A DNA stretch of 64,000 nucleotides, taken from positions 5,146,001 through 5,210,000 of the forward strand of contig NZ_CP070969.1 of the NCBI RefSeq assembly GCF_017086365.1. Reading direction: 5' to 3'. The notes below the pieces were generated by a model that did no database searches, was not told where the DNA came from, and saw nothing but the letters and a program-made list of their open reading frames with translations. This document shows positions 18,648-28,298 of the stretch, one piece after another. The position numbers and the translations under genes are program-made. The stretch is from Paenibacillus tianjinensis. Its GTDB lineage: Bacteria > Bacillota > Bacilli > Paenibacillales > Paenibacillaceae. Position 1 is the stretch's first letter. Each line of letters opens with the position of its first letter.

Positions 18648-19985
18648 TCAGCTAATCTTCGAATGAACCAGCAGGCGTTTGATCGAGCGGTTGGCCTCCT
18701 GCAGCACGGTGTCTTTATCCACGGTCTTCAGCAGTCCTTTATCCATCAGGATTTTACCATCGACAATCGTCGTTTCCACATCCGCGCGGGTGGCGGAATA
18801 GACGATGCGGGAGATCGGGTCGATATCATAGGAAGGGAAGGTGTGGAAGTTGTAGAGGTTCAAGATGGCCAGGTCGGCTTTTTTGCCGACTTCGATGCTG
18901 CCGATCTTGTCTTCCATACCCACTGCCTTGGCACCGCCGATGGTTGCCATACGGAACACGCTGCGCGCATCCATGGTCGTCGGGCCATGATGCGGTTTCT
19001 GGATGATCGCCGCCAGCCGCATTTCGTTGAACATATCCAGGTTATTGTTGCACGGTGCGCCGTCAGCTCCCAGACTGAGGTGAACGTGGTCATGCAGCAT
19101 ACCCGGCGTATCCGCAATACCTGAAGCCAGCTTCAGATTGGAGCCCGGACAGTGGCTGACATGCACTCCGCGGTCCCGCAAAATCCGCTTCTCCTCCGCA
19201 TCCAGCCACACGCAGTGCGCCAGAATCAGGCGTTCATTCGCCAGCCCCAAGTGATCCAGATACACAACGTTGCGCATGCCGGTCATCGCCTGGACGATTT
19301 CGATTTCACCCTGGTTCTCGGAGGCGTGGGTGTGTACTTTGACGTTATACCGCGCCGACAGGTCGCGGACCTCCTTCAGCAGCGGCTCGGTGCAGGAGAT
19401 GACAAAACGCGGCGAGAACGCGTACTGAATACGCCCGTTGTCATAGCCGTTCCATTTCTCCAGCAGATCCACACTCTCCTGGAGGGATGCCGCCGTATCC
19501 TCCTGCAGCGCTTCAGGAACATCGCCGCCCTTCTGATCCATCATCACCTTGCCGGAGAGGGCGCGGATGCCGCTTTTGGCTATCGCCTGAAACGCAAAAT
19601 CCGTATGGTTGACCGTCTCCATATCAACAATCGTCGTCGTGCCGCTGGAGATCAGCTCTCCAATCCCCAGCATGGCGGAATAGTACAGCGAATCCTCATC
19701 ATGCGCCGCCTCCAGCGGCCAGATCCGTTTACGCAGCCAGTCCATCAGCTCTAAGTCATCCCCTTTGCCGCGGAACAGCGTCTGGCAGAGATGGATGTGC
19801 GTCTGTACAAAGCCGGGAATGACTGTACGGTTCGTCGCGTCGATTACCCGTTCATCCCCCTGTGCCGTAAGGCCGCTGCCGATTTCAACAATCAGGCTGT
19901 CTTTAATCCGGATATCACCATGAAAGATTTCTTCCTGTTTATTCATCGTAATAATCTCCGCATTTTTGATCAGAATGTTCGCCAT
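18648..19985 (-). CDS. amidohydrolase, purine/adenosine-type deaminase family
   Basis: 445 residues of the metal-dependent cytosine/adenosine deaminase-like family. Metal ligands are visible as HIHLCQ, HTHASEN, HCVWLD and the Asp in LGADGAPCNNN. The family includes 5'-deoxyadenosine/S-adenosylhomocysteine deaminase (MtaD/DadD) and guanine deaminase-type enzymes; the motif set looks closer to the former. The leader, however, holds a purine riboswitch with a guanine-type specificity base arranged to turn expression on, which suggests a guanine-related substrate. Sequence alone does not settle the substrate. It is a single-gene transcript with its own promoter, riboswitch and terminator. Confidence 0.85.
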   Translation of the reverse strand: MANILIKNAEIITMNKQEEIFHGDIRIKDSLIVEIGSGLTAQGDERVIDATNRTVIPGFVQTHIHLCQTLFRGKGDDLELMDWLRKRIWPLEAAHDEDSLYYSAMLGIGELISSGTTTIVDMETVNHTDFAFQAIAKSGIRALSGKVMMDQKGGDVPEALQEDTAASLQESVDLLEKWNGYDNGRIQYAFSPRFVISCTEPLLKEVRDLSARYNVKVHTHASENQGEIEIVQAMTGMRNVVYLDHLGLANERLILAHCVWLDAEEKRILRDRGVHVSHCPGSNLKLASGIADTPGMLHDHVHLSLGADGAPCNNNLDMFNEMRLAAIIQKPHHGPTTMDARSVFRMATIGGAKAVGMEDKIGSIEVGKKADLAILNLYNFHTFPSYDIDPISRIVYSATRADVETTIVDGKILMDKGLLKTVDKDTVLQEANRSIKRLLVHSKIS

Positions 19986-20040: not shown

Positions 20041-20076
20041 GGCTACAAAAATATGCCTCAGCATATTTTCGTAGCC
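20041..20076 (-). terminator. riboswitch-controlled terminator
   Basis: GGCTACGAAAATATGC pairs with GCATATTTTTGTAGCC (one G-T-type pair) with a 4-nt loop, followed by T5. Its 5' arm contains the 3' strand of aptamer stem P1, so terminator and ligand-bound aptamer exclude each other. Confidence 0.88.
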
Positions 20077-20133
20077 AGAAATTTACGGTTCCCGGTAGAG
20101 ACCCTTAAACCAATTATTAAGGATATACGAAAA
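20066..20133 (-). promoter_or_regulatory. purine riboswitch aptamer, C74 (guanine-type), ON architecture
   Basis: Minus-strand leader. P1 is TTTTCGTA/TACGAAAA, P2 is CCTTAA/TTAAGG, and the core GTCTCTACC ... AACCGTAAAT matches the purine-riboswitch consensus. The base before the 3' P1 strand (position 74 in xpt numbering) is C, which selects guanine-like ligands; position 73 is G where A is usual. Ligand binding closes P1 and removes the 5' arm of the terminator at 20041-20076, so ligand should increase expression of the amidohydrolase. Confidence 0.9.
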
Positions 20134-20164
20134 AAAGGATTATTCAATTGCCTTGAATAACCTC

Positions 20165-20194: not shown

Positions 20195-20290
20195 TATAAT
20201 TAACATTAAATATTTATATTAATGAAAAACAAAGCACTTACTCTAATGAAAACCAATATTAATGTTATATTACACTACATGAAATTTGCT

Positions 20291-20794
20291 TTATTCATCT
20301 TCAAAAAATCCGCCTTCAAATAAGTCCGTTTGAGGATCTGCTACTAATCCTTGCGGTGGGTCAAACTGAAGTTTTATCTTCCCAGCTGCTTTTTTGCCGA
20401 CCCATTTCAGCGCACTTTTCCCTTTAGGGATTTCCAGTGTAATATTTCCTTCCTTGTCTCCAATCCAAATCGTGCTTAATTGATGATCTTCTGTTGTTTG
20501 AATCAATTTAAATTTGCCCCGGTTAATAGAACCTTCTATCTTAATTGTTATTGTTTCATTATTTTGGCTGTTTATTTTCCAAACCGTAAAAACACCTGAG
20601 AATCCGCTAAATTTAAAATCCGCCTCCTTACTGCTAATTTCACCCACCTTGTTCTCAAACGTAAAGCTGTCCCCCGATTCCAATAGACGATTCTCATTAT
20701 TAAAAAGTTTCTCTTGTTTATTCACAAACACACCACATCCCCCAATCCATAAAACTGTGCACATTATAAGAACTAAATTTAGAGTACGCTTCAA
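20291..20794 (-). CDS. putative lipoprotein
   Basis: 167 residues with a lipoprotein signal: MKRTLNLVLIMCTVLWIGGC, lipobox IGGC, so Cys20 would be lipidated and the protein anchored outside the membrane. The mature part is hydrophilic and beta-rich with no family I recognise. The start is TTG with GAGGGGG upstream, overlapping the acetyltransferase stop (TTGA). It is the last gene of the AT-rich island downstream of the RiPP exporter. It could be an accessory or immunity factor, which is inference from position only. Confidence 0.72.
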   Translation of the reverse strand: MKRTLNLVLIMCTVLWIGGCGVFVNKQEKLFNNENRLLESGDSFTFENKVGEISSKEADFKFSGFSGVFTVWKINSQNNETITIKIEGSINRGKFKLIQTTEDHQLSTIWIGDKEGNITLEIPKGKSALKWVGKKAAGKIKLQFDPPQGLVADPQTDLFEGGFFEDE

Positions 20795-21306
20795 TAATTA
20801 GCCCCCTCGTCTAACTTTTTAACTAGTTTATGACGATATAACTCCATTTTGCATAAATGTCCTAATAATTTGGCTACTTTGTTGTTATGCTCAAAGACAT
20901 CTGCCACGATGTACAACAATTTTTTTTCGCTTGCCCATTTCTCGACGCAATTATACAGTTGATGGAAATAATATAGGGATTGTGGTGAATTCCGAAAGCT
21001 TTCTTCAATGTAATAATGGAGGATATAAGCATGGTCATCTATAAAGAAATGGAAATCCTTTGCACTTCTCCATACCTCGATATAACCATAAACAGAATTT
21101 TCATTCTCAAGTATAAATATTCCACAATTCTCATTTTCTAATAACTCAGTATAGTGTTCTATTGATTCATTGACACTGTCAGGTATTTCTCCGGTATAAA
21201 ACTTATCTTTTTGAAGCTGATCAGCGGATAATTTAATCCACATTAAGGCGATATCTGAAACATCCTTAAACTCAGCTCTTCTAACAATATTTTTAATTGG
21301 ATCCAT
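20791..21306 (-). CDS. GNAT-like acetyltransferase (probable)
   Basis: 171 residues with the strand-helix pattern of a GNAT fold: RRAEFKDVSDIALMWIKLS at the start, IFILENENSVYGYIEVWRS as strands 2-4, and LLYIVADVFEHNNKVAKLLGHL near the end. The acetyl-CoA loop (Q/RxxGxG/A) is not clear, as EESFRNSPQSLYYF occupies its place, so activity is uncertain. AAGGTG precedes the ATG. It lies 28 bp after the ABC exporter and overlaps the lipoprotein gene, so it is in the RiPP-cluster transcript. Peptide modification or self-protection is speculative. Confidence 0.6.
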   Translation of the reverse strand: MDPIKNIVRRAEFKDVSDIALMWIKLSADQLQKDKFYTGEIPDSVNESIEHYTELLENENCGIFILENENSVYGYIEVWRSAKDFHFFIDDHAYILHYYIEESFRNSPQSLYYFHQLYNCVEKWASEKKLLYIVADVFEHNNKVAKLLGHLCKMELYRHKLVKKLDEGANY

Positions 21307-21334: not shown

Positions 21335-23047
21335 TTATACATACTCCATTAACATTCCATTATTAAGTATCTTCTCTGTGAATAATTTATCTTTTTCCGT
21401 TTCTACAACTTCTTGTACTTGACCATTGTGAAAGCTATAAATTTTATTCGCATCAGCAATAGTTGTTAACCGATGAGCAATTACGATCACCAAGCATTCC
21501 CTTGATATCTCTTCAATAATATCTTTGATGCGGATTTCATTATCTATATCTAAAAACGAAGTTGGTTCATCCAAAATAAAAATTTTCGGTCTCTTTAGTA
21601 GCGCTCTAGCAATAGCTAATCGTTGCATTTCTCCACCTGATAAATTCACTCTTTCAGTTATTAAAGTGTCATAAGAATCCGCTAAAGAAATGATTTTTTC
21701 ATGAAGTCCAAGTTTTTTACAAACATCTGTAATTTCATCCGTTGTAGCTAGTTCGTTGCCACAATGTAGATTTTCTATTATGCTCATATTGAATAAGTTA
21801 ATATCCTGAGAGACATAACTAATATTTTGGCGAAGAGTCTCCACGCCTATTCCCAACATGTCGGAGTTGTTTAAAAAGATTTCCCCCTGCTCTGGCCTAT
21901 AGAAACCAAGTATTATTTTTACCAACGTACTTTTACCTGAGCCTGATTGTCCAATAAATGCGATTAAGCCTTTGCTCGGAAATTGCATATTTACACCAGA
22001 TAGTGCCTTTGTTCCATCGCTATAGGAAAAACTTATATCCTTAATTGTCATTCCATCAAAAACTTCCGGAAAAGCTAAATTTACTAATGTTTCTGCCTCC
22101 ATATCGAAGTACTCATAAATACGATCAAATACAGGTATCGTTTTGCGCAAACTGGTCTGGCTTCCAACTAATTCATATAAAGGCTGTACCAATAATTGGA
22201 AATATAGGCCTAATGCAACCACCTCTCCTAATGTCAATTCACCCCTCATAACACCTATACTTCCCATCCCATATATAATTCCCAATGATAAGACAACGAC
22301 AACTGTGGACAGGTTGTTTAATAATGTACTTAAATATCCGATACTCTTATTATCCTTAAATGTTTTTTTTATCACTTCATTATATTTGTTAATAGTAGCT
22401 TTTTCCGCTGAAAAAGCTTTGATTGTAACAACGGAATCTGCCATTTGGTTCACAGTAGTGCAAATGGCATCCGAGTTTATTTGAGAACGTTGGGAAAGAG
22501 CAATAAAGCGTCTGCCTATTTTCCAATTCAAAAAAAGAAAACATACTACCATTAGAAGTATAATTAAAGTTATTACAGGAGATATGTAAAACATACCTCC
22601 AATTACTAAAATAATCAGTAATAGATTTTTTATTATTAAAACAAAAAAATTGGTAATAAAATCACTTGCCGCACGCCCATCCGATAGAATTCTAGAAATA
22701 ATTTCTCCTTTTTTCGCCTGTTCGAAGAAAGAAATAGGTGCATAAATGACTTTTTCAAACATAGTGTTTCTTATCCCTAAGGTAATAGATTCAGAGATAT
22801 GTAAAAAAATAATGTCTTTAAAATATCCAAAAACAGGTTGCATTACACAAACTAATGTAAATAAAAAAATCCCAAAGTATAATTTATGCATAGATTCAGT
22901 AGGTATAACTTCGTCGACCAAGTATTGAGAAACTAAGGGAGAAGAAAAAACAGCCAATGTATATATTAGAGTCAGACAGAATCCCGCTATTTGGGAAAAA
23001 ACGTATGGCTTAGTTAACCATATAATTCTCTTGAAAAATATTTTCAT
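21335..23047 (-). CDS. ABC exporter (fused permease and ATPase) of the RiPP cluster
   Basis: 570 residues. Six spans occupy ~1-300, then a nucleotide-binding domain: Walker A IGQSGSGKST, signature LSGGEMQRLAIARALL, Walker B IFILDEPTSFLD, H-loop AHRLTT. There is no N-terminal C39 peptidase, so leader removal would need a separate enzyme, and the gene just upstream encodes a candidate. ATG 23047 has GGGAGG 6-7 bases upstream and is preferred over 23068. The likely cargo is the modified Cys-rich peptides encoded at 26490-27366, by position. Confidence 0.9.
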   Translation of the reverse strand: MKIFFKRIIWLTKPYVFSQIAGFCLTLIYTLAVFSSPLVSQYLVDEVIPTESMHKLYFGIFLFTLVCVMQPVFGYFKDIIFLHISESITLGIRNTMFEKVIYAPISFFEQAKKGEIISRILSDGRAASDFITNFFVLIIKNLLLIILVIGGMFYISPVITLIILLMVVCFLFLNWKIGRRFIALSQRSQINSDAICTTVNQMADSVVTIKAFSAEKATINKYNEVIKKTFKDNKSIGYLSTLLNNLSTVVVVLSLGIIYGMGSIGVMRGELTLGEVVALGLYFQLLVQPLYELVGSQTSLRKTIPVFDRIYEYFDMEAETLVNLAFPEVFDGMTIKDISFSYSDGTKALSGVNMQFPSKGLIAFIGQSGSGKSTLVKIILGFYRPEQGEIFLNNSDMLGIGVETLRQNISYVSQDINLFNMSIIENLHCGNELATTDEITDVCKKLGLHEKIISLADSYDTLITERVNLSGGEMQRLAIARALLKRPKIFILDEPTSFLDIDNEIRIKDIIEEISRECLVIVIAHRLTTIADANKIYSFHNGQVQEVVETEKDKLFTEKILNNGMLMEYV

Positions 23048-23067
23048 TATAGTCCTCCCTGAAAACA

Positions 23068-23694
23068 TTATCTCTCTAGCAGCGCCTTCACCTGTTGTCG
23101 CCCAAAAATAGCATCGTTTTCAAATGACTCTAAAATTAGCATTCTATCGATAATTGAGTTTACTCCGAAAGAGTCCACTAATTTTTTGACTGCTTTTGCG
23201 CTACTAATATAGAATACCTCATCATCGTAATTTAAATTGTATACATCAGTTTTAACATGATTGAATGCATCTAAAGCAAAGTTATTGATCTGGCCAGATA
23301 GATACACTGCCAACCCTTCATCTAACCATAAAGGACAACTAGACCTCAACTTACTATGAAGAACTATATGAGAGAATTCATGAATAATTAGTTCTTCTAA
23401 AGTACCAATGTTTTTATGTTTCCATCTTTCGTAGTTAACAATAAGTATATCTTTACCATAAATAGTACCTATAACCCATGATGGTATGGGAACTCCAACA
23501 TATCGCTGGAGCTCCTCTACAGAATCAAACCATTTTATCCAAACCTTACTCCTAAATCCGAATAAGAAACGAATGTATAATATACTCTCGTTTAAAACAT
23601 CAAAGTTCTGTAATTGATTTATGAAGATTAAATTATCCGTTAAAATGTTTAAATTATTTCGCCACAACATATTCGGACACACTATGTAAATCAT
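23068..23694 (-). CDS. zinc metallopeptidase (peptidase MA-like)
   Basis: 208 residues. The zinc motif HEFSHIVLHS and the downstream LWLDEGLAVYLSGQ (third ligand Glu) match the gluzincin/peptidase MA pattern. No signal peptide is clear; the N-terminus MIYIVCPNMLWRN could be weakly hydrophobic. It overlaps the maturase gene by 41 bp if the first ATG is used; ATG 23667 is an alternative. Between a radical SAM maturase and an exporter lacking a C39 domain, it is the likely leader peptidase. That role is inference. Confidence 0.8.
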   Translation of the reverse strand: MIYIVCPNMLWRNNLNILTDNLIFINQLQNFDVLNESILYIRFLFGFRSKVWIKWFDSVEELQRYVGVPIPSWVIGTIYGKDILIVNYERWKHKNIGTLEELIIHEFSHIVLHSKLRSSCPLWLDEGLAVYLSGQINNFALDAFNHVKTDVYNLNYDDEVFYISSAKAVKKLVDSFGVNSIIDRMLILESFENDAIFGRQQVKALLER

Positions 23695-24738
23695 TCCTTC
23701 TTTGGAGGTACGTTAATTTTAAAACATCGTCAAGATTGTATCTCCATTTTTCACAATCTGGTTCATTACCTAGCATTTCTCCGTTATACGGACACCCTCC
23801 CATACAAATCGGTAAAACGTCACAATTGGTACATTTATCAAAGTTGAACGGTGACCACAGTAAATAATCAGCATTTCTCATAAACATTTTCTCATTTGTT
23901 GGCTCATGAATTGTGTTCACATTCCCCACTGCGCGCTCCTTATTCCCCACATCGTTCCAACATTTATACATAAATCCATTAGGATCAAGAACATACGAAT
24001 CAACTGCATCAGCACAACAATAATTAGCCTTAACACCTGGATAGTATGGATAGTTCCCCACATTAAATCCTTTTGCAAATAATATCGCCTGCTGAACAAC
24101 ATTCTCTTTGGCATATTCTTCTGTATTTAGACAGGATTCTGCAATCGACATACAAGCTTCTGTATAGGCAGTTACTTGTCCTAAATTAATAGATAACCCC
24201 TGCAAATTATGAGCGACTAAAATATCAAGTAGCTCTTCTACATTAGCGACATTAGTTTTATCGACATTAATTCTAATAGAAACATTTATATCGTTTTCTA
24301 ATAATTTTTTTATATTATTAAGAATGACAAAAAAGGTGTCTTTGTCACTTCCTTTAAGTCTTCTTCTAGAATTATGGATCTCTGGCGGGCCATCCATTGT
24401 AATTTGGGCTCCGTCTATTTTATATTTTTTGAAGTGCTCGATAACCTCATCATTGATAAGATATCCATTGGTAACAATATAAGAATTGTATGATACACTG
24501 TATTTCTCACAAATTGAAATAATGCGTTCCGATAAAGAGTAAATCACTTTCTTAGCTGTCAAAGGTTCGCCACCGTACCAGGTAATATGAATATCATTTC
24601 CTTTTTTCGCAGCATCATTCACGAGATTTATAACCGCATCCATAGTTGATTGATCCATTACCCCTTGTTTCGGATCTTCATAACAGTAGGGGCAAGCAAA
24701 GTTACAGCTTAGTGTTGGAGCAATTGTTAAACCTAAAG

Positions 24739-26098
24739 GGGTCTGTCAATAATTTTGTGTAAACTCTTTTAAGCACAGATTCCCCCGAGGGGGAAGTCGC
24801 GAATCTAACGCAAGTGTTGACCGACCCGGTCTGGGAAAAATACCGAAAGCTGGAGCAGCATTTGGCCCCAGTTTTGGACACGTCCAGTCCATTTTCGAGT
24901 GACATCGACGGTGGCCAGATAGAGCATTTTTAGCAGAGCTTCATCGGTAGGAAAGATGCTCTTTCCTTTGGTTACTTTACGAAGCTGACGGTGGTAACTC
25001 TCAATCATATTGGTGGTGTAAATCAGTTTACGTATCTCAGGCGGGTACTTGAAAAAAGTAGCAAGTTCGTCCCAATTCGTCCGCCACGAACGGATAATGA
25101 GGGGATATTTCGCCCCCCAGACTTCCTCAAAACGGTCGAGTTCAAGCAAGGCACCTTCCTCGGTAGCTGCCTTGTATATAGGCTTTAAGTCGGCGGTCAC
25201 CTTCTTAATATCCTTGTAAGACACGTACCGTGTAGAGCTGCGGATTTGGTGAATAATACACTTCTGGATTTCAGTTTGGGGATAGCAGGCCGCAATCGCT
25301 TGAGAGAACCCGGACAGGTTATCCACACAGATAATGAGAATGTCCCCCACTCCACGATTCTTGAGTTCATTCAGCACGCTGAGCCAGAACTTGGAGGACT
25401 CGTTCTCACCAATCCACATGCCCAGCACGTCTTTGTTTCCGTCCAGATCAATGCCAATGACCATGTAGGCAGCCTTGTTGATAATGGCCCCGTCTTGCTT
25501 GACTTTGAAGTGGATCGCATCCAGATAGACAACAGCGTAAACGCCTTGCAGAGGCCGATTCTGCCATTCTTTAATGAGAGGAACAATCTTATTTGTGACA
25601 TTGGAAATGAGCGTAGGCGACACCTCAATGCCATACATCTGCCCCAGGTGATCCTGAATTTCTCGGGTACTAATCCCTTTGGCGTACAGAGCGATGATTT
25701 GCTCTTCGATGCCGGTTACGTTCGACTGATGCTTCTTGACGACAAGTGGCTCAAACTCACCCAGACGGTCACGAGGGATAGCGATTTCCTGTTCCCCGTA
25801 CTCACTGACAACCGTTTTACGGCTCTTTCCGTTACGGCTGTTTGGCGTGAGCTTCGCCTTCACTTCATGCTTTCCGTAGCCTAAATGAGTGTCCATTTCG
25901 GCTTCCAGCATCTCCTGAATCGTCTCCGCAAATAGCTCTTTTAGAGCATTCTGCGCATCCTGTGCGCTTACCAAGTTGTTTTCCTTAATAAATTCCCGTA
26001 ACTGTTGTTTTGTCCAAAGTCCCATGTGTTCTCCCCAACCTTTCTCTTACTTCCATTTTAATGGGTTTGAGAGTTTACACAATATATTTTACAGACTC
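24739..26098 (-). mobile_element. IS256-family (Mutator-like) element, 1360 bp
   Basis: Imperfect ~29-bp inverted ends starting G(G/A)GTCTGT and sharing TTGTGTAAACTCT. An 8-bp target duplication ACCTAAAG (24731-24738 and 26099-26106) lies inside the radical SAM gene. Perfect duplication and an intact transposase suggest a recent insertion. Confidence 0.95.
24805..26025 (-). CDS. IS256-family transposase
   Basis: 406 residues, the standard length. N-terminal LKELFAETIQEMLEAEMDTHLGYGKHE and the IPRDRLGEFEP segment are family hallmarks. The DDE set is visible as VVYLDAIHFKVK, IICVDNLSGFSQAI and TTNMIESYHRQLRK. It cuts and pastes the element with an 8-9 bp target duplication. No frame damage seen. 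The gene runs in the same direction as the maturase it interrupts. Confidence 0.95.
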   Translation of the reverse strand: MGLWTKQQLREFIKENNLVSAQDAQNALKELFAETIQEMLEAEMDTHLGYGKHEVKAKLTPNSRNGKSRKTVVSEYGEQEIAIPRDRLGEFEPLVVKKHQSNVTGIEEQIIALYAKGISTREIQDHLGQMYGIEVSPTLISNVTNKIVPLIKEWQNRPLQGVYAVVYLDAIHFKVKQDGAIINKAAYMVIGIDLDGNKDVLGMWIGENESSKFWLSVLNELKNRGVGDILIICVDNLSGFSQAIAACYPQTEIQKCIIHQIRSSTRYVSYKDIKKVTADLKPIYKAATEEGALLELDRFEEVWGAKYPLIIRSWRTNWDELATFFKYPPEIRKLIYTTNMIESYHRQLRKVTKGKSIFPTDEALLKMLYLATVDVTRKWTGRVQNWGQMLLQLSVFFPDRVGQHLR

Positions 26099-26416
26099 AC
26101 CTAAAGAACCACCGTTATATTTACCATTAAAGTGTCTGAATTTGATTGACTTTAATTCGTCAAAATCATCATTAATGATGTAATTGCCTTCAAGCATCAT
26201 ATCTACCAATTCTTTTTTTTCCCCTGTAAGATTTTCATAATCAATTTCAGAAATATGGTTAAGAATATCAAAAAAGCTATCATCAACAGCTGCCAAACCG
26301 CATGTCATAGCATTAAAAGCAATTTTAGTTTCATCTTGCATTGTCAAAATTCTATTATACTTCGATACTTTCATACTTAAGTCTCTCCTCTATTGTCTGT
26401 CTTTTCATAATTAAAT

Positions 26417-26459
26417 GTCATTATGATGTGACAGAGTTACTGAGTCGCATCATAATGAC
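26417..26459. promoter_or_regulatory. hairpin between precursor genes and maturase
   Basis: Perfect 12-bp arms GTCATTATGATG/CATCATAATGAC with a 19-nt loop, lying between the last precursor peptide (ends 26490) and the maturase start (26374). There is no strong T run, so it may be a leaky terminator or an mRNA-stabilising element that keeps precursor mRNA in excess. Confidence 0.6.
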
Positions 26460-26489
26460 TTCGTATTATTTATAAGGTGATTAGATATA

Positions 26490-26612
26490 CTATTTGCTAA
26501 TACATAATGTGGTGCATCCTACTTGGTCATCACATCTATTGTTGCATTGCTTTGCACAGCCATAACAATAAGCACCAACATTTATCTTACTTGGAGTGAT
26601 TAAATATTTCAT
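26490..26612 (-). CDS. Cys-rich RiPP precursor peptide 6
   Basis: 40 residues. A short leader beginning MKYLITPSK is followed by a Cys-rich core with spacing C-x2-C-x3-C-x3-C-x5-C-x3-C (YCYGC ... CTTLC, ending ISK). It is nearly a duplicate of precursor 5: the last half (QCNN-C--DQVGC-TLCISK) is almost the same. AAGGTGG lies upstream of the ATG. Presumed substrate of the radical SAM/SPASM enzyme encoded next; the peptides resemble the small tandem Cys-rich peptides I know as Clo7bot-type from Clostridium botulinum (recall). Confidence 0.85.
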   Translation of the reverse strand: MKYLITPSKINVGAYCYGCAKQCNNRCDDQVGCTTLCISK

Positions 26613-26631
26613 ATCTCATTCCACCTTTTCA

Positions 26632-26754
26632 TTATTTACTAATGCATAATGTGCTACATCCTACTTGATCATTACATTTGTTGTTACATTGTTTAGAACA
26701 GGCAAAGCAATAAGTCAGTTCATAACCAACTTTTGGATCTATGATATATTTCAT
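26632..26754 (-). CDS. Cys-rich RiPP precursor peptide 5
   Basis: 40 residues: leader MKYIIDPKVGYELTY, then core with C-x2-C-x3-C-x3-C-x5-C-x3-C, ending LCISK. GGGAGG is 5 bases before the ATG. With precursor 6 it forms the most similar pair of the six, probably from a tandem duplication. All six share an M-(K/R/D)-(Y/F)-(I/V/L)-(I/V)-x-P N-terminus, probably the maturase recognition sequence. Confidence 0.87.
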   Translation of the reverse strand: MKYIIDPKVGYELTYCFACSKQCNNKCNDQVGCSTLCISK

Positions 26755-26781
26755 AGTACCTCCCACATTATAAATACCTAT

Positions 26782-26892
26782 TTATACCTTTTTATCCAAA
26801 CATTGTTTTATGCAATCGTTTTGGCATTGGTTTTTGCATCCTAAGCAATATCCCTCTACCCATCTCTGACCAGGCTTTACCACAAACTTCAT
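26782..26892 (-). CDS. Cys-rich RiPP precursor peptide 4
   Basis: 36 residues: leader MKFVVKPGQRWVEGY, core C-x2-C-x3-C-x3-C-x3-C, the most regular CXXX repeat of the set, with a short DKKV tail. AAGGAGG lies eight bases before the ATG. Five cysteines, so at least one cannot form a simple Cys-Cys pair. Confidence 0.87.
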   Translation of the reverse strand: MKFVVKPGQRWVEGYCLGCKNQCQNDCIKQCLDKKV

Positions 26893-26918
26893 AGTGTTTA
26901 CCTCCTTAATTGAAATGA

Positions 26919-27068
26919 TTATGTTACTGCTCCACACATGTTTGGACAATTACCTTGACATGGATAATTCGTTCTACATTCGTTGCAGTTAGGTGTACAT
27001 TTGTTACAATTTGTACAGTAACAGTAAGAAGTGAAATTTTTCACTAAAGGCTTCACTATATAATCCAC
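26919..27068 (-). CDS. Cys-rich RiPP precursor peptide 3
   Basis: 49 residues from a GTG start (27068) chosen because AGGAGG sits nine bases upstream and the product then begins MDYIVKP like its neighbours. It is the longest core, with nine cysteines: C-x-C-x2-C-x2-C-x3-C-x2-C-x5-C-x3-C-x3-C. The frame is open further upstream, but that would overlap precursor 2 and lose the shared leader start. Confidence 0.85.
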   Translation of the reverse strand: MDYIVKPLVKNFTSYCYCTNCNKCTPNCNECRTNYPCQGNCPNMCGAVT

Positions 27069-27081
27069 TCTGCACATCCTC

Positions 27082-27219
27082 CTAGACGAATACCGTATAT
27101 CCAAGGCAATTATTCTTGTAGCTGCCACACTTACTGCTACACTGATCACAATGATCACATTGTGAACAAAGACAGTATCCCAGAGTATCTTTTTTTGTGG
27201 GTTTGACTACATACCTCAA
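27082..27219 (-). CDS. Cys-rich RiPP precursor peptide 2
   Basis: 45 residues from a TTG start with AAGGAGG nine bases upstream. Leader MRYVVKPTKKDTLGY, core C-x-C-x2-C-x2-C-x2-C-x3-C-x6-C, and a hydrophobic tail LGYTVFV not seen in the others. The stop lies 13 bp before the next start. Confidence 0.85.
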   Translation of the reverse strand: MRYVVKPTKKDTLGYCLCSQCDHCDQCSSKCGSYKNNCLGYTVFV

Positions 27220-27255
27220 AACCGATCACCTCCTTTCTGAATAAATCCATTCTCT

Positions 27256-27366
27256 TTAACTAAAGGAATCACACCTTGAGCTACATCTGTCTCCACATTT
27301 ATTACAGTTAATGCAATAACAATATGAATATTGATTATGGTTCAAAGGAAGAATTATATATCTCAT
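27256..27366 (-). CDS. Cys-rich RiPP precursor peptide 1
   Basis: 36 residues, first of the array. Leader MRYIILPLNHNQYSY, core C-x-C-x2-C-x2-C-x3-C-x3-C, ending DSFS. GGAG is six bases before the ATG. The AT-rich 270 bp upstream (27367-27640) has no gene and presumably holds the cluster promoter. Confidence 0.87.
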   Translation of the reverse strand: MRYIILPLNHNQYSYCYCINCNKCGDRCSSRCDSFS

Positions 27367-27640
27367 TAGCCACTCCTTTATTCATTTTTTGTAAGCAAAT
27401 CACTGATATAAAAATATTTTTTTAACATTAATGCCTTTCAATACTATAAATATCCTTATTAAGTAATTTCTTAACCTAATTTACACAACTAAACATCATC
27501 CTTCTATTAAATTTGTCATATAATGGATCTATTATCTCTCATAAAAGTAATTATGGGATTATTATCCACTTTGAAATCAGAGAATTTAATTATTTGAGCT
27601 GTACACGGAAGGATAAATCCAAAAAAATGCCACAAAAAAA
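27367..27640. other. AT-rich gap upstream of the precursor array
   Basis: No gene seen. It is very AT-rich and is the only place for a promoter of the precursor peptides, but no -35/-10 pair stands out clearly enough to call. Confidence 0.4.
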
Positions 27641-27790
27641 CTAGGCCGGTTCTACAAAGAAGTCATACACGCTTTCGCTAACAAACTCAGCGACACGCGA
27701 ATGGTTTCCTAGTAAGAACCAGCCCTGTTTTTCGTCTAAAACTTTCATCTGGTGATTAACATTTTGAACAACACTATATCTTTTACACAT
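27641..27790 (-). CDS. 49-residue protein coupled to a GNAT gene, unknown
   Basis: 49 residues, MCKRYSVVQN ... VYDFFVEPA. Its ATG overlaps the end of the acetyltransferase gene by 8 bp and AAGG lies six bases upstream, so it would be made by translational coupling. The sequence looks protein-like, with mixed hydrophobic and charged residues. I do not recognise a family. Confidence 0.5.
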   Translation of the reverse strand: MCKRYSVVQNVNHQMKVLDEKQGWFLLGNHSRVAEFVSESVYDFFVEPA

Positions 27791-28298
27791 TAAGCACCTT
27801 CTCAAACACCGGAAAACTCACTGCCCGGTGAGGAAAAAACAGTTCGCCCCTGCGTTCATAGCCGAGACTCGGATATAAGGCCAGCGCCCGGGTATTCTTC
27901 GAATAGGTATCCAGCCGGATGCTGCTGTAGCCTTCCCTGCGTGCATGCTCTTCGGAAAAAGCGATCAGCTTGCGTGCAATGCCCTTGCCCTGCACCTCGG
28001 GATGAACCGCCAGCCGGTGCATGATCAGATGCCGCCCCTGCTCCTGTGACCAATGAATGCTCTGATAGAGCTCACTCGGATGCTCGTCCAATACGATAAT
28101 GCCGGCAATAGCTTCATTATCTATGTAGGCGTATAATGTCCCCCGTTCAATGTCCTGTCCGATGACTTCCCGGTTAGGATAGCTGTCATCCCATTGGTCG
28201 CTTCCGCCAGCCTGCATGGCTTGTACGCATTTGGCAATCAGCTCCATAATCTCCCCGGTTTCCTCTGCCAGTGCCTTGCGAATCTCGTTACTGTTCAT
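27783..28298 (-). CDS. GNAT N-acetyltransferase
   Basis: 171 residues. The acetyl-CoA loop is clear in HRLAVHPEVQGKGIARKLIAF (Q-G-K-G-I-A), preceded by the strand AIAGIIVLDE and followed by the C-terminal helix/strand RREGYSSIRLDTYSKNTRALALYPSLGYERRG. Transfers an acetyl group from acetyl-CoA to an amine; the acceptor is unknown. AGGG lies near the ATG. The small frame at 27641 overlaps its 3' end. Confidence 0.9.
   Translation of the reverse strand: MNSNEIRKALAEETGEIMELIAKCVQAMQAGGSDQWDDSYPNREVIGQDIERGTLYAYIDNEAIAGIIVLDEHPSELYQSIHWSQEQGRHLIMHRLAVHPEVQGKGIARKLIAFSEEHARREGYSSIRLDTYSKNTRALALYPSLGYERRGELFFPHRAVSFPVFEKVLNV

What the first reader, a model, noticed from the sequence alone, without database searches (positions are those of the whole stretch)
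21335..27366. Six-precursor Cys-rich RiPP cluster with radical SAM/SPASM maturase, peptidase and exporter
Six small genes in a row (36, 45, 49, 36, 40 and 40 residues) each have their own ribosome-binding site and share the start M-(K/R/D)-(Y/F)-(I/V/L)-(I/V)-x-P, followed at residue ~15 by a core with 5-9 cysteines at CxC, CxxC and CxxxC spacing. They are followed by a radical SAM/SPASM gene, a HEFSH metallopeptidase, an ABC exporter without a C39 domain, a GNAT-like gene and a lipoprotein. The arrangement recalls the Clo7bot-type peptides of Clostridium (recall, not a search). Core lengths and Cys patterns differ among the six, so one enzyme would handle several scaffolds.
Basis: partly seen in the sequence, partly recalled or inferred. 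Interest (0 to 1): 0.88.

Follow-up and report, generated by a model that had tools for sequence, protein, structure and literature searches.

The report
Cysteine-rich peptide cluster with broken maturase
A bacterium carries six small cysteine-rich peptide genes of a known but uncharacterised family, together with the genes to modify, cut and export them, but a jumping gene has split the modifying enzyme in two, so the finished peptides are probably not made in this strain.

Summary
Six peptide genes (27366 to 26490, minus strand), each with a Shine-Dalgarno-like site, share the start M-[KRD]-[YF]-[IVL]-[IV]-x-P and a first Cys at residue 16. TIGR04333 (Clo7bot Cys-rich peptide) is the best NCBIfam hit for all six; three exceed its cut-off. 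The maturase is TIGR04334-like but split by a 1,360-bp IS256-type element (24739-26098, 8-bp direct repeat). The cut falls between the leader-binding and catalytic domains; no ATG, GTG or TTG precedes the CxxxCxxC motif in the second piece, and the genome has no second TIGR04334 match. In 10 named relatives (maturase 48-61% identical to P0003), 9 carry 5-10 such peptides beside a single maturase, 9 the same HExxH peptidase, 9 the exporter and 6 the acetyltransferase. So this is a new, disrupted member of a known kind, on an AT-rich island absent from close relatives. Thioether cross-linking by a CteB-like enzyme is likely but untested; known acceptor patterns are not enriched. What goes beyond the annotated pair is the conserved peptidase and acetyltransferase, and cores that vary far more than the leader.

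The parts
27256..27366 (-). precursor 1, 36 aa, 6 Cys
   Evidence: TIGR04333 27.3 bits, below cut-off 31
27082..27219 (-). precursor 2, 45 aa, 7 Cys, TTG start
   Evidence: TIGR04333 40.2 bits
26919..27068 (-). precursor 3, 49 aa, 9 Cys, GTG start
   Evidence: TIGR04333 26.0 bits, below cut-off
26782..26892 (-). precursor 4, 36 aa, 5 Cys
   Evidence: TIGR04333 39.4 bits; also TIGR04118 at 18.3 bits, under its cut-off 35
26632..26754 (-). precursor 5, 40 aa, 6 Cys
   Evidence: TIGR04333 33.9 bits
26490..26612 (-). precursor 6, 40 aa, 6 Cys
   Evidence: TIGR04333 25.2 bits, below cut-off
26099..26374 (-). maturase, first piece: 92 native residues, the leader-binding (RRE-like) domain
   Evidence: TIGR04334 positions 1-92, 125.2 bits; strands 7-11, 17-21, 26-30 and helices 32-43, 51-62, 73-86 in the model of the intact relative P0003; boundary
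24739..26098 (.). IS256-type insertion element inside the maturase gene, flanked by ACCTAAAG at 24731-24738 and 26099-26106
   Evidence: 8 further copies at about 100% identity, 2 at 90%, 1 partial at 85% in the genome; ends from 9 copies of 1,360 bp, 7 of 9 with 8-bp direct repeats
24805..26025 (-). Mutator-family transposase of the element, 406 aa
   Evidence: PF00872 384 bits
23654..24738 (-). maturase, second piece: radical SAM core with CxxxCxxC and SPASM domain
   Evidence: TIGR04334 positions 116-438, 526.3 bits; PF04055; no ATG/GTG/TTG in frame before the motif, TGA in the IS end at 24748
23068..23694 (-). HExxH metallopeptidase, 208 aa, M1/Peptidase_MA-like; true start may lie downstream
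   Evidence: PF13485 26.6 bits, under cut-off 32.4; homologue in 9 of 10 named relatives; H105, E106, H109, E126 invariant in 10 sequences
21335..23068 (-). ABC exporter, 577 aa, no C39 domain found
   Evidence: PF00664, PF00005; strong homologue in 9 of 10 named relatives
20791..21306 (-). GNAT acetyltransferase, 171 aa, part of the cassette
   Evidence: PF00583; homologue in 6 of 10 named relatives, none in other loci held
20291..20794 (-). lipoprotein-like ORF, 167 aa, possible immunity protein
   Evidence: IGGC lipobox-like motif (sequence); no homologue at E 1e-3 in relatives; kept in strain G040 that lacks the rest

Best explanation
This is a Clo7bot-type RiPP cassette whose maturase gene has been cut by an insertion element. 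In intact relatives the likely order of events is: several precursors (5-10 per locus) are translated; the first residues of the leader dock on the maturase's N-terminal RRE; the nearly fixed 15-residue leader places Cys16 at the SPASM cluster side of the active site, as Cys21 of CteA is placed in CteB; the radical SAM/SPASM enzyme then joins some Cys sulfurs to nearby residues; the M1-like metallopeptidase removes the leader near G-Y-C; the ABC exporter secretes the cores; the GNAT and lipoprotein protect the producer or tailor the product. Shown: the gene set, its linkage, the leader/core pattern, the break. Inferred: thioether chemistry (about 0.65), cleavage site, secretion and an antibacterial role. 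In this strain modification should not occur.
For: Family hits; intact relatives in the family; the six-peptide profile hits small ORFs in 9 of 10 close named relatives and in none of the 60 more distant loci of the same scan. One maturase per locus in 10 of 10; peptidase 9 of 10, exporter 9 of 10, GNAT 6 of 10, and no peptidase or GNAT hit in the other loci held. First Cys at residue 16 in 50 of 68 precursors, P7 in 62, G and Y before the Cys in 52 and 51. The best solved match is 5wgg by sequence (94.6 bits, positions 15-412) and 5why/5wgg by fold (E 1.2e-19); that these entries are CteB is recalled. Break. CteB leader and Cys21 geometry: passages of PMC8326336.
Against: Three of six peptides and both maturase pieces fall under the curated cut-offs. 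Known thioether spacings are not enriched: D/E at +4 z 1.2, D/N at +4 z -0.2, D/N at -3 z -0.9, S/T at +5 z 0.0 and +2 z 1.4; 19 of 68 precursors hold CX3[DE] and 23 NxxC. The fold list also holds enzymes of other chemistry close behind (anaerobic sulfatase maturase, SuiB; their chemistry recalled). L043 shows no precursor by either rule. Peptidase fold matches are weak (TM 0.50-0.56). The lipoprotein has no clear homologue in other cassettes. Exporter homologues also occur in 45 other loci held, so that link is less specific.
Confidence: 0.82

Rival explanations
1. The split enzyme still works: the 92-residue RRE is made as a free protein and the catalytic part is started at the in-frame ATT just before the CxxxCxxC motif, giving a two-protein system like those with separate RREs.
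For: The cut falls in the linker between the RRE (model residues 7-86) and the barrel; the ATT-started 356-aa form is the one listed in the protein collection as P0001.
Against: ATT is a rare start (recalled) with only a short AGG upstream (sequence); no ATG/GTG/TTG; the element lies between the two parts and its end carries a TGA in frame.
Confidence: 0.04
2. The peptides are metal-binding or redox peptides rather than cross-linked RiPPs; the radical SAM enzyme makes another change, such as epimerisation or a C-C bond.
For: Dense CxC/CxxC frameworks; no conserved acceptor residue found; enzymes of other chemistry are in the structure lists.
Against: The best match in both structure searches is the thioether-forming enzyme of 5wgg/5why (94.6 bits; next, sulfatase maturase 73.4 and SkfB 49.8).
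Confidence: 0.22
3. The products are signals or housekeeping peptides, not bacteriocins.
For: No activity data; SCIFF peptides were argued not to be antimicrobial because they are so widespread in Clostridia (PMC8326336 passage).
Against: Patchy occurrence (of 394 genomes of the family held, only this one has a match that strong; two sister types at about 346 bits), variable cores, FtsX/MacB-type permease genes beside two relatives, and a lipoprotein kept where the rest is missing fit a conflict role better.
Confidence: 0.35

Closest known systems
Clo7bot family (NCBIfam TIGR04333 precursors, TIGR04334 maturase; Pfam PF27857 on collection proteins)
   Same: Leader motif, Cys-rich core, tandem precursors beside one radical SAM/SPASM enzyme
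   Different: Here the maturase is interrupted; the conserved peptidase and GNAT partners have no Clo7bot-named family
CteA/CteB (SCIFF, thermocellin; ranthipeptide)
   Same: RRE + radical SAM + SPASM build, best sequence and fold match, Cys at leader end
   Different: About 20% identity; many variable precursors here; S/T at the reported Cys-Thr distances (+5 or +2) not enriched
PapA/PapB (freyrasin, Paenibacillus polymyxa)
   Same: Cys-rich precursor and radical SAM/SPASM enzyme
   Different: CX3D rule not enriched here; PapB model 104.9 bits against cut-off 340
Cys-rich peptide maturase CcpM (TIGR04068)
   Same: Maturase of Cys-rich peptides, by its family name
   Different: Second piece scores 60.2 bits against cut-off 500

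Membership tests
Clo7bot precursor (TIGR04333) | score above curated cut-off 31 | tested here: inconclusive
   3 of 6 above (40.2, 39.4, 33.9), 3 of 6 below (27.3, 26.0, 25.2); no better family for any
Clo7bot maturase (TIGR04334) | full-length score above 600 | tested here: inconclusive
   Gene is in two pieces, 125.2 and 526.3 bits; second stretch 592.6 in the genome search, which reads into the IS end.
Clo7bot system | precursors next to the maturase | tested here: met
   Window, and 9 of 10 named relatives
Radical SAM/SPASM | CxxxCxxC and SPASM Cys set | tested here: met
   PF04055 46.3 bits over cut-off 29.5, TIGR04085 55.6 over 27; Cys set invariant in the 24 aligned relatives
Ranthipeptides | thioether to a non-alpha carbon | not testable with these tools
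   Needs mass spectrometry and NMR
Freyrasin type (PapB) | CX3D (or E) cross-link motif | tested here: not met
   1 of 6 window peptides has CX3[DE], 19 of 68 overall; D/E at +4 z 1.2
NxxC ranthipeptides | Asn three before Cys | tested here: not met
   3 of 6 window peptides hold one NxxC, 23 of 68 overall; D/N at -3 z -0.9
C39 (double-glycine) bacteriocin export | C39 peptidase domain on the exporter | tested here: not met
   No C39 domain among the 11 Pfam families listed at E up to 1

The most novel reading that the evidence does not exclude
Clo7bot arrays are a bacterial peptide-library system: one leader-guided radical SAM enzyme cross-links many cores whose Cys frameworks diversify freely behind a nearly frozen 15-residue leader, using an acceptor rule different from CX3D and NxxC, and a dedicated metallopeptidase and acetyltransferase finish and neutralise the mixture. 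This locus is a natural knock-out of the maturase within such a system.
Probability: 0.3. Interest if true: 0.7.

Novelty: new member of a known kind. Interest (0 to 1): 0.45.

Why it matters
The family has a name in NCBIfam and Pfam, but full-text searches of the held open library for Clo7bot and TIGR04334 gave 0 papers, so chemistry and function look open. The window gives six substrates of one enzyme with two core layouts (CxCxxC in three, CxxCxxxC in three), a conserved partner set, and intact relatives to supply the enzyme. If one enzyme cross-links such different cores it would be a tool for peptide engineering, and the broken copy beside intact peptides is a natural control.

Tried and rejected
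Rejected: (1) chance origin of the peptide row, by the Markov control. (2) CcpM, SCIFF-maturase and PapB membership, by scores far under cut-off (60.2 of 500, 56.5 of 425, 104.9 of 340). (3) A second Clo7bot maturase acting in trans: the TIGR04334 search of the own genome found only the two pieces at E 1e-3; a looser search with TIGR04068 shows three other radical SAM-like places at 21-27.5 bits, not followed. (4) An identifiable acceptor residue: a Cys-centred shuffle test on 60 representative cores gave N/Q at +3 (z 5.5), D/N at -2 (z 3.5), S/T at +4 (z 4.6) and Tyr at -1 (z 9.0); these are mixed and partly forced by the common G-Y-C and by Cys spacing, so none is claimed as the acceptor. 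(5) The peptidase ORF start resembles the leader (MIYIVCP); its homologues do not share it, so it is taken as coincidence. (6) The lipoprotein against relatives: best phmmer hits E 0.0036 (a lipoprotein-like ORF at L037 4944-5729) and 0.004 in the small set held; suggestive only.

Led nowhere: promoter and terminator scan (20 and 3 sites, fewer than the shuffle means 32.4 and 5.1); paper searches on family accessions, whose 20 listed rows of 384 were unrelated and held no TIGR04333, and on TigE; a homologue search with the peptidase found, beside the window's own, one protein. The Pfam copy gave no hit for the two precursors scanned.
Full report
What was checked. The window lies at G000:C1:5146001-5210000 of a single 6.27-Mb contig. 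No call names the organism; a Paenibacillus-type host is my guess. All lie on the minus strand in a row, each with a Shine-Dalgarno-like site. One search's rule finds 6 in the window, all here, against 16 in 100 Markov-1 resamples of the island (never more than 1).

Family. Against NCBIfam all six have TIGR04333 (Clo7bot family Cys-rich peptide) as best hit: 27.3, 40.2, 26.0, 39.4, 33.9 and 25.2 bits, cut-off 31, so 3 of 6 pass; peptide 4 also touches TIGR04118 at 18.3 bits, cut-off 35. The maturase pieces have TIGR04334 as best hit, 125.2 bits over positions 1-92 and 526.3 bits over 116-438, cut-off 600 for a whole protein. Of intact relatives I scanned P0003 and 7 of the 10 close named loci (not L039, L040, L042): P0003 720.6, L036 718.1, L037 774.6, L038 817.8 and L045 605.5 pass; L041 589.9, L044 574.2 and L043 539.2 do not. 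The next proteins by score in the same taxonomic family, L007 (347.1 bits) and the G165 protein (345.3 bits), are sister types, not members. A profile search with 15 rows (14 distinct precursors) returned 11 proteins, all carrying Pfam PF27857, two of them the window's own; 3 are named Clo7bot by NCBI and 1 by JGI.

The break. An element of 1,360 bp with a PF00872 transposase sits at 24739-26098. Eight further copies in the genome are about 100% identical, two 90% and one partial copy 85%; the nine near-identical copies give the ends, and 7 of 9, this one included, have 8-bp direct repeats. The first maturase piece keeps 92 native residues and then runs 7 codons into the element. The second piece begins after the element; upstream of its CxxxCxxC motif the frame holds a TGA in the element's end and no ATG, GTG or TTG, only an ATT, at which the 356-aa product P0001 of the protein collection starts. 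The first ATG comes after the motif. No other TIGR04334 match at E 1e-3 exists in this genome. Intact copies exist in relatives. I conclude that the strain most likely cannot modify these peptides.

Relatives. One scan of named genomes with a 24-protein alignment gave 70 loci; ten, L036-L045, have a maturase 48-61% identical to P0003, which itself is 77% identical to the window's second piece. A profile of the six window peptides hits small ORFs in 9 of these ten and in none of the other 60 (E up to 0.1). With a start-motif and Cys rule, limited to the arrays, I kept 62 precursors in those nine loci plus the window's six, 68 in all; other hits of the rule (for example ORFs inside the maturase gene in L038 and L040, stray ORFs in L037 and L042) were dropped before counting. 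L043 has none by either rule. The first Cys is residue 16 in 50 of 68; residue 7 is Pro in 62; residue 2 Lys or Arg in 65; G and Y precede the Cys in 52 and 51. There are 52 distinct Cys-gap patterns among 68. Within the window, residues 1-7 are 54% identical between paralogues and the non-Cys core 26%; leader above core holds in the window and all nine loci (pairs with a first Cys before residue 13 were left out). Optimal alignment of such short cores probably inflates their identity.

Partner genes. Blast with the window proteins finds one maturase in each of the ten loci, the peptidase in 9 (not L042), a strong exporter match in 9 (not L039, whose contig ends), the GNAT in 6 (L036, L037, L038, L039, L041, L045); no peptidase or GNAT hit falls in the other loci held, while exporter-like hits fall in 45 of them, as expected of a common protein. 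The peptidase keeps H105, E106, H109 and E126 in all ten sequences. Pfam gives Peptidase_MA_2 in 8 of 10 and Peptidase_M1 in 6 of 10 members at E 0.01. Its model (pLDDT 88.2) best matches clostridial collagenase peptidase domains at TM 0.50-0.56, so a gluzincin is likely and the precise fold kin is not settled. The GNAT may acetylate the product or protect the producer. FtsX/MacB-type permease genes stand downstream in L037 and L038.

Mechanism. The model of P0003 (pLDDT 83.5) starts with three strands and three helices in residues 7-86, the usual RRE order (the RRE topology is recalled), followed by the radical SAM and SPASM parts. Entry 5wgg/5why, which I recall as CteB, is first by sequence and by fold; TigE, anaerobic sulfatase maturase and SuiB follow in the fold list, so the fold alone does not fix the chemistry. 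I saw passages on CteB, ranthipeptides and PapB in PMC8326336, PMC11002830, PMC9413430 and PMC7470986, and on anaerobe RiPPs in PMC4289311. In CteB the leader lies on the RRE as a strand and Cys21 can meet the open iron of a SPASM cluster. The nearly fixed leader length here makes the same use of Cys16 plausible. The known acceptor rules do not carry over: CX3[DE] in 19 of 68, NxxC in 23 of 68, and no clear enrichment at those offsets or at the Cys-Thr distances reported for CteA. So I commit to thioether formation by a CteB-like enzyme at about 0.65, with the acceptor unknown.

Origin. GC is 31-35% over the cassette windows against 42-58% in the flanks and 46-49% in the element. The flanking amidohydrolase and acetyltransferase genes are 7.8 kb apart here, but 0.55-0.62 kb apart in G090, G029 and G006 and 1.34 kb in G040. 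Homology with G006 stops at 20212 and resumes at 27787, with about 390 bp of other sequence between, so it is not a clean empty site. G040 keeps the lipoprotein ORF (162 aa), the last residues of the cassette GNAT and a 73% similar piece of 27636-27747, but no other match to the cassette at E 1e-3. The lipoprotein copies differ more (dN 0.13, dS 0.59) than the neighbouring amidohydrolase (dS 0.23), which suggests exchange or separate acquisition of the island. A lipoprotein kept where the rest is missing is what an immunity gene would show, though it proves nothing.

Distribution. Of 394 genomes of the taxonomic family searched at E 1e-100, three match: this one and the two sister types G055 and G165. 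A protein named from Gorillibacterium (P0012, 60% identical) shows that the set held is not complete.

Novelty. Clo7bot peptides and their maturase are named families, so the finding is a new, interrupted member of a known kind. Full-text searches for Clo7bot and TIGR04334 gave 0 papers; this covers only the open library held. New, as far as these searches show, are the conserved peptidase and GNAT partners, the leader/core contrast across 68 precursors, and a natural maturase knock-out.

Noticed in passing
L129 (G040), about 1734-2423: Remnant of the same island in a close relative: intact lipoprotein ORF, last residues of the cassette GNAT and a decayed piece of 27636-27747, no other cassette match.
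   Followed up: partly
L119 8920-9081; L120 3582-3773 and 9089-9202: Loci of the same taxonomic family with a maturase about 346 bits to TIGR04334 and Cys-rich peptides starting MNFLVLP, MEFLINP, MIYLIAP that hit no NCBIfam family at E 0.1: a sister system.
   Followed up: partly
L054 3997-4932: Six tandem peptides starting M[KN]WIEKP in a Wallbacteria MAG beside a 33% identical maturase; the one scanned hits no NCBIfam family.
   Followed up: no
window 20052-20150, minus strand: Purine riboswitch aptamer (RF00167, 70.9 bits) upstream of the amidohydrolase gene 18648-19985.
   Followed up: no
L036 12362-15022; L041 5786-7252: AMP-binding enzymes, in L036 fused to carrier and KR domains, just downstream of the cassette.
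   Followed up: no
L044 9338-10159: A methyltransferase-like gene between maturase and precursors, possible further tailoring.
   Followed up: no
window 27641-27805: Small ORF at the island's upstream end (49 aa from its ATG), no Pfam or NCBIfam hit, decayed copy in G040.
   Followed up: partly
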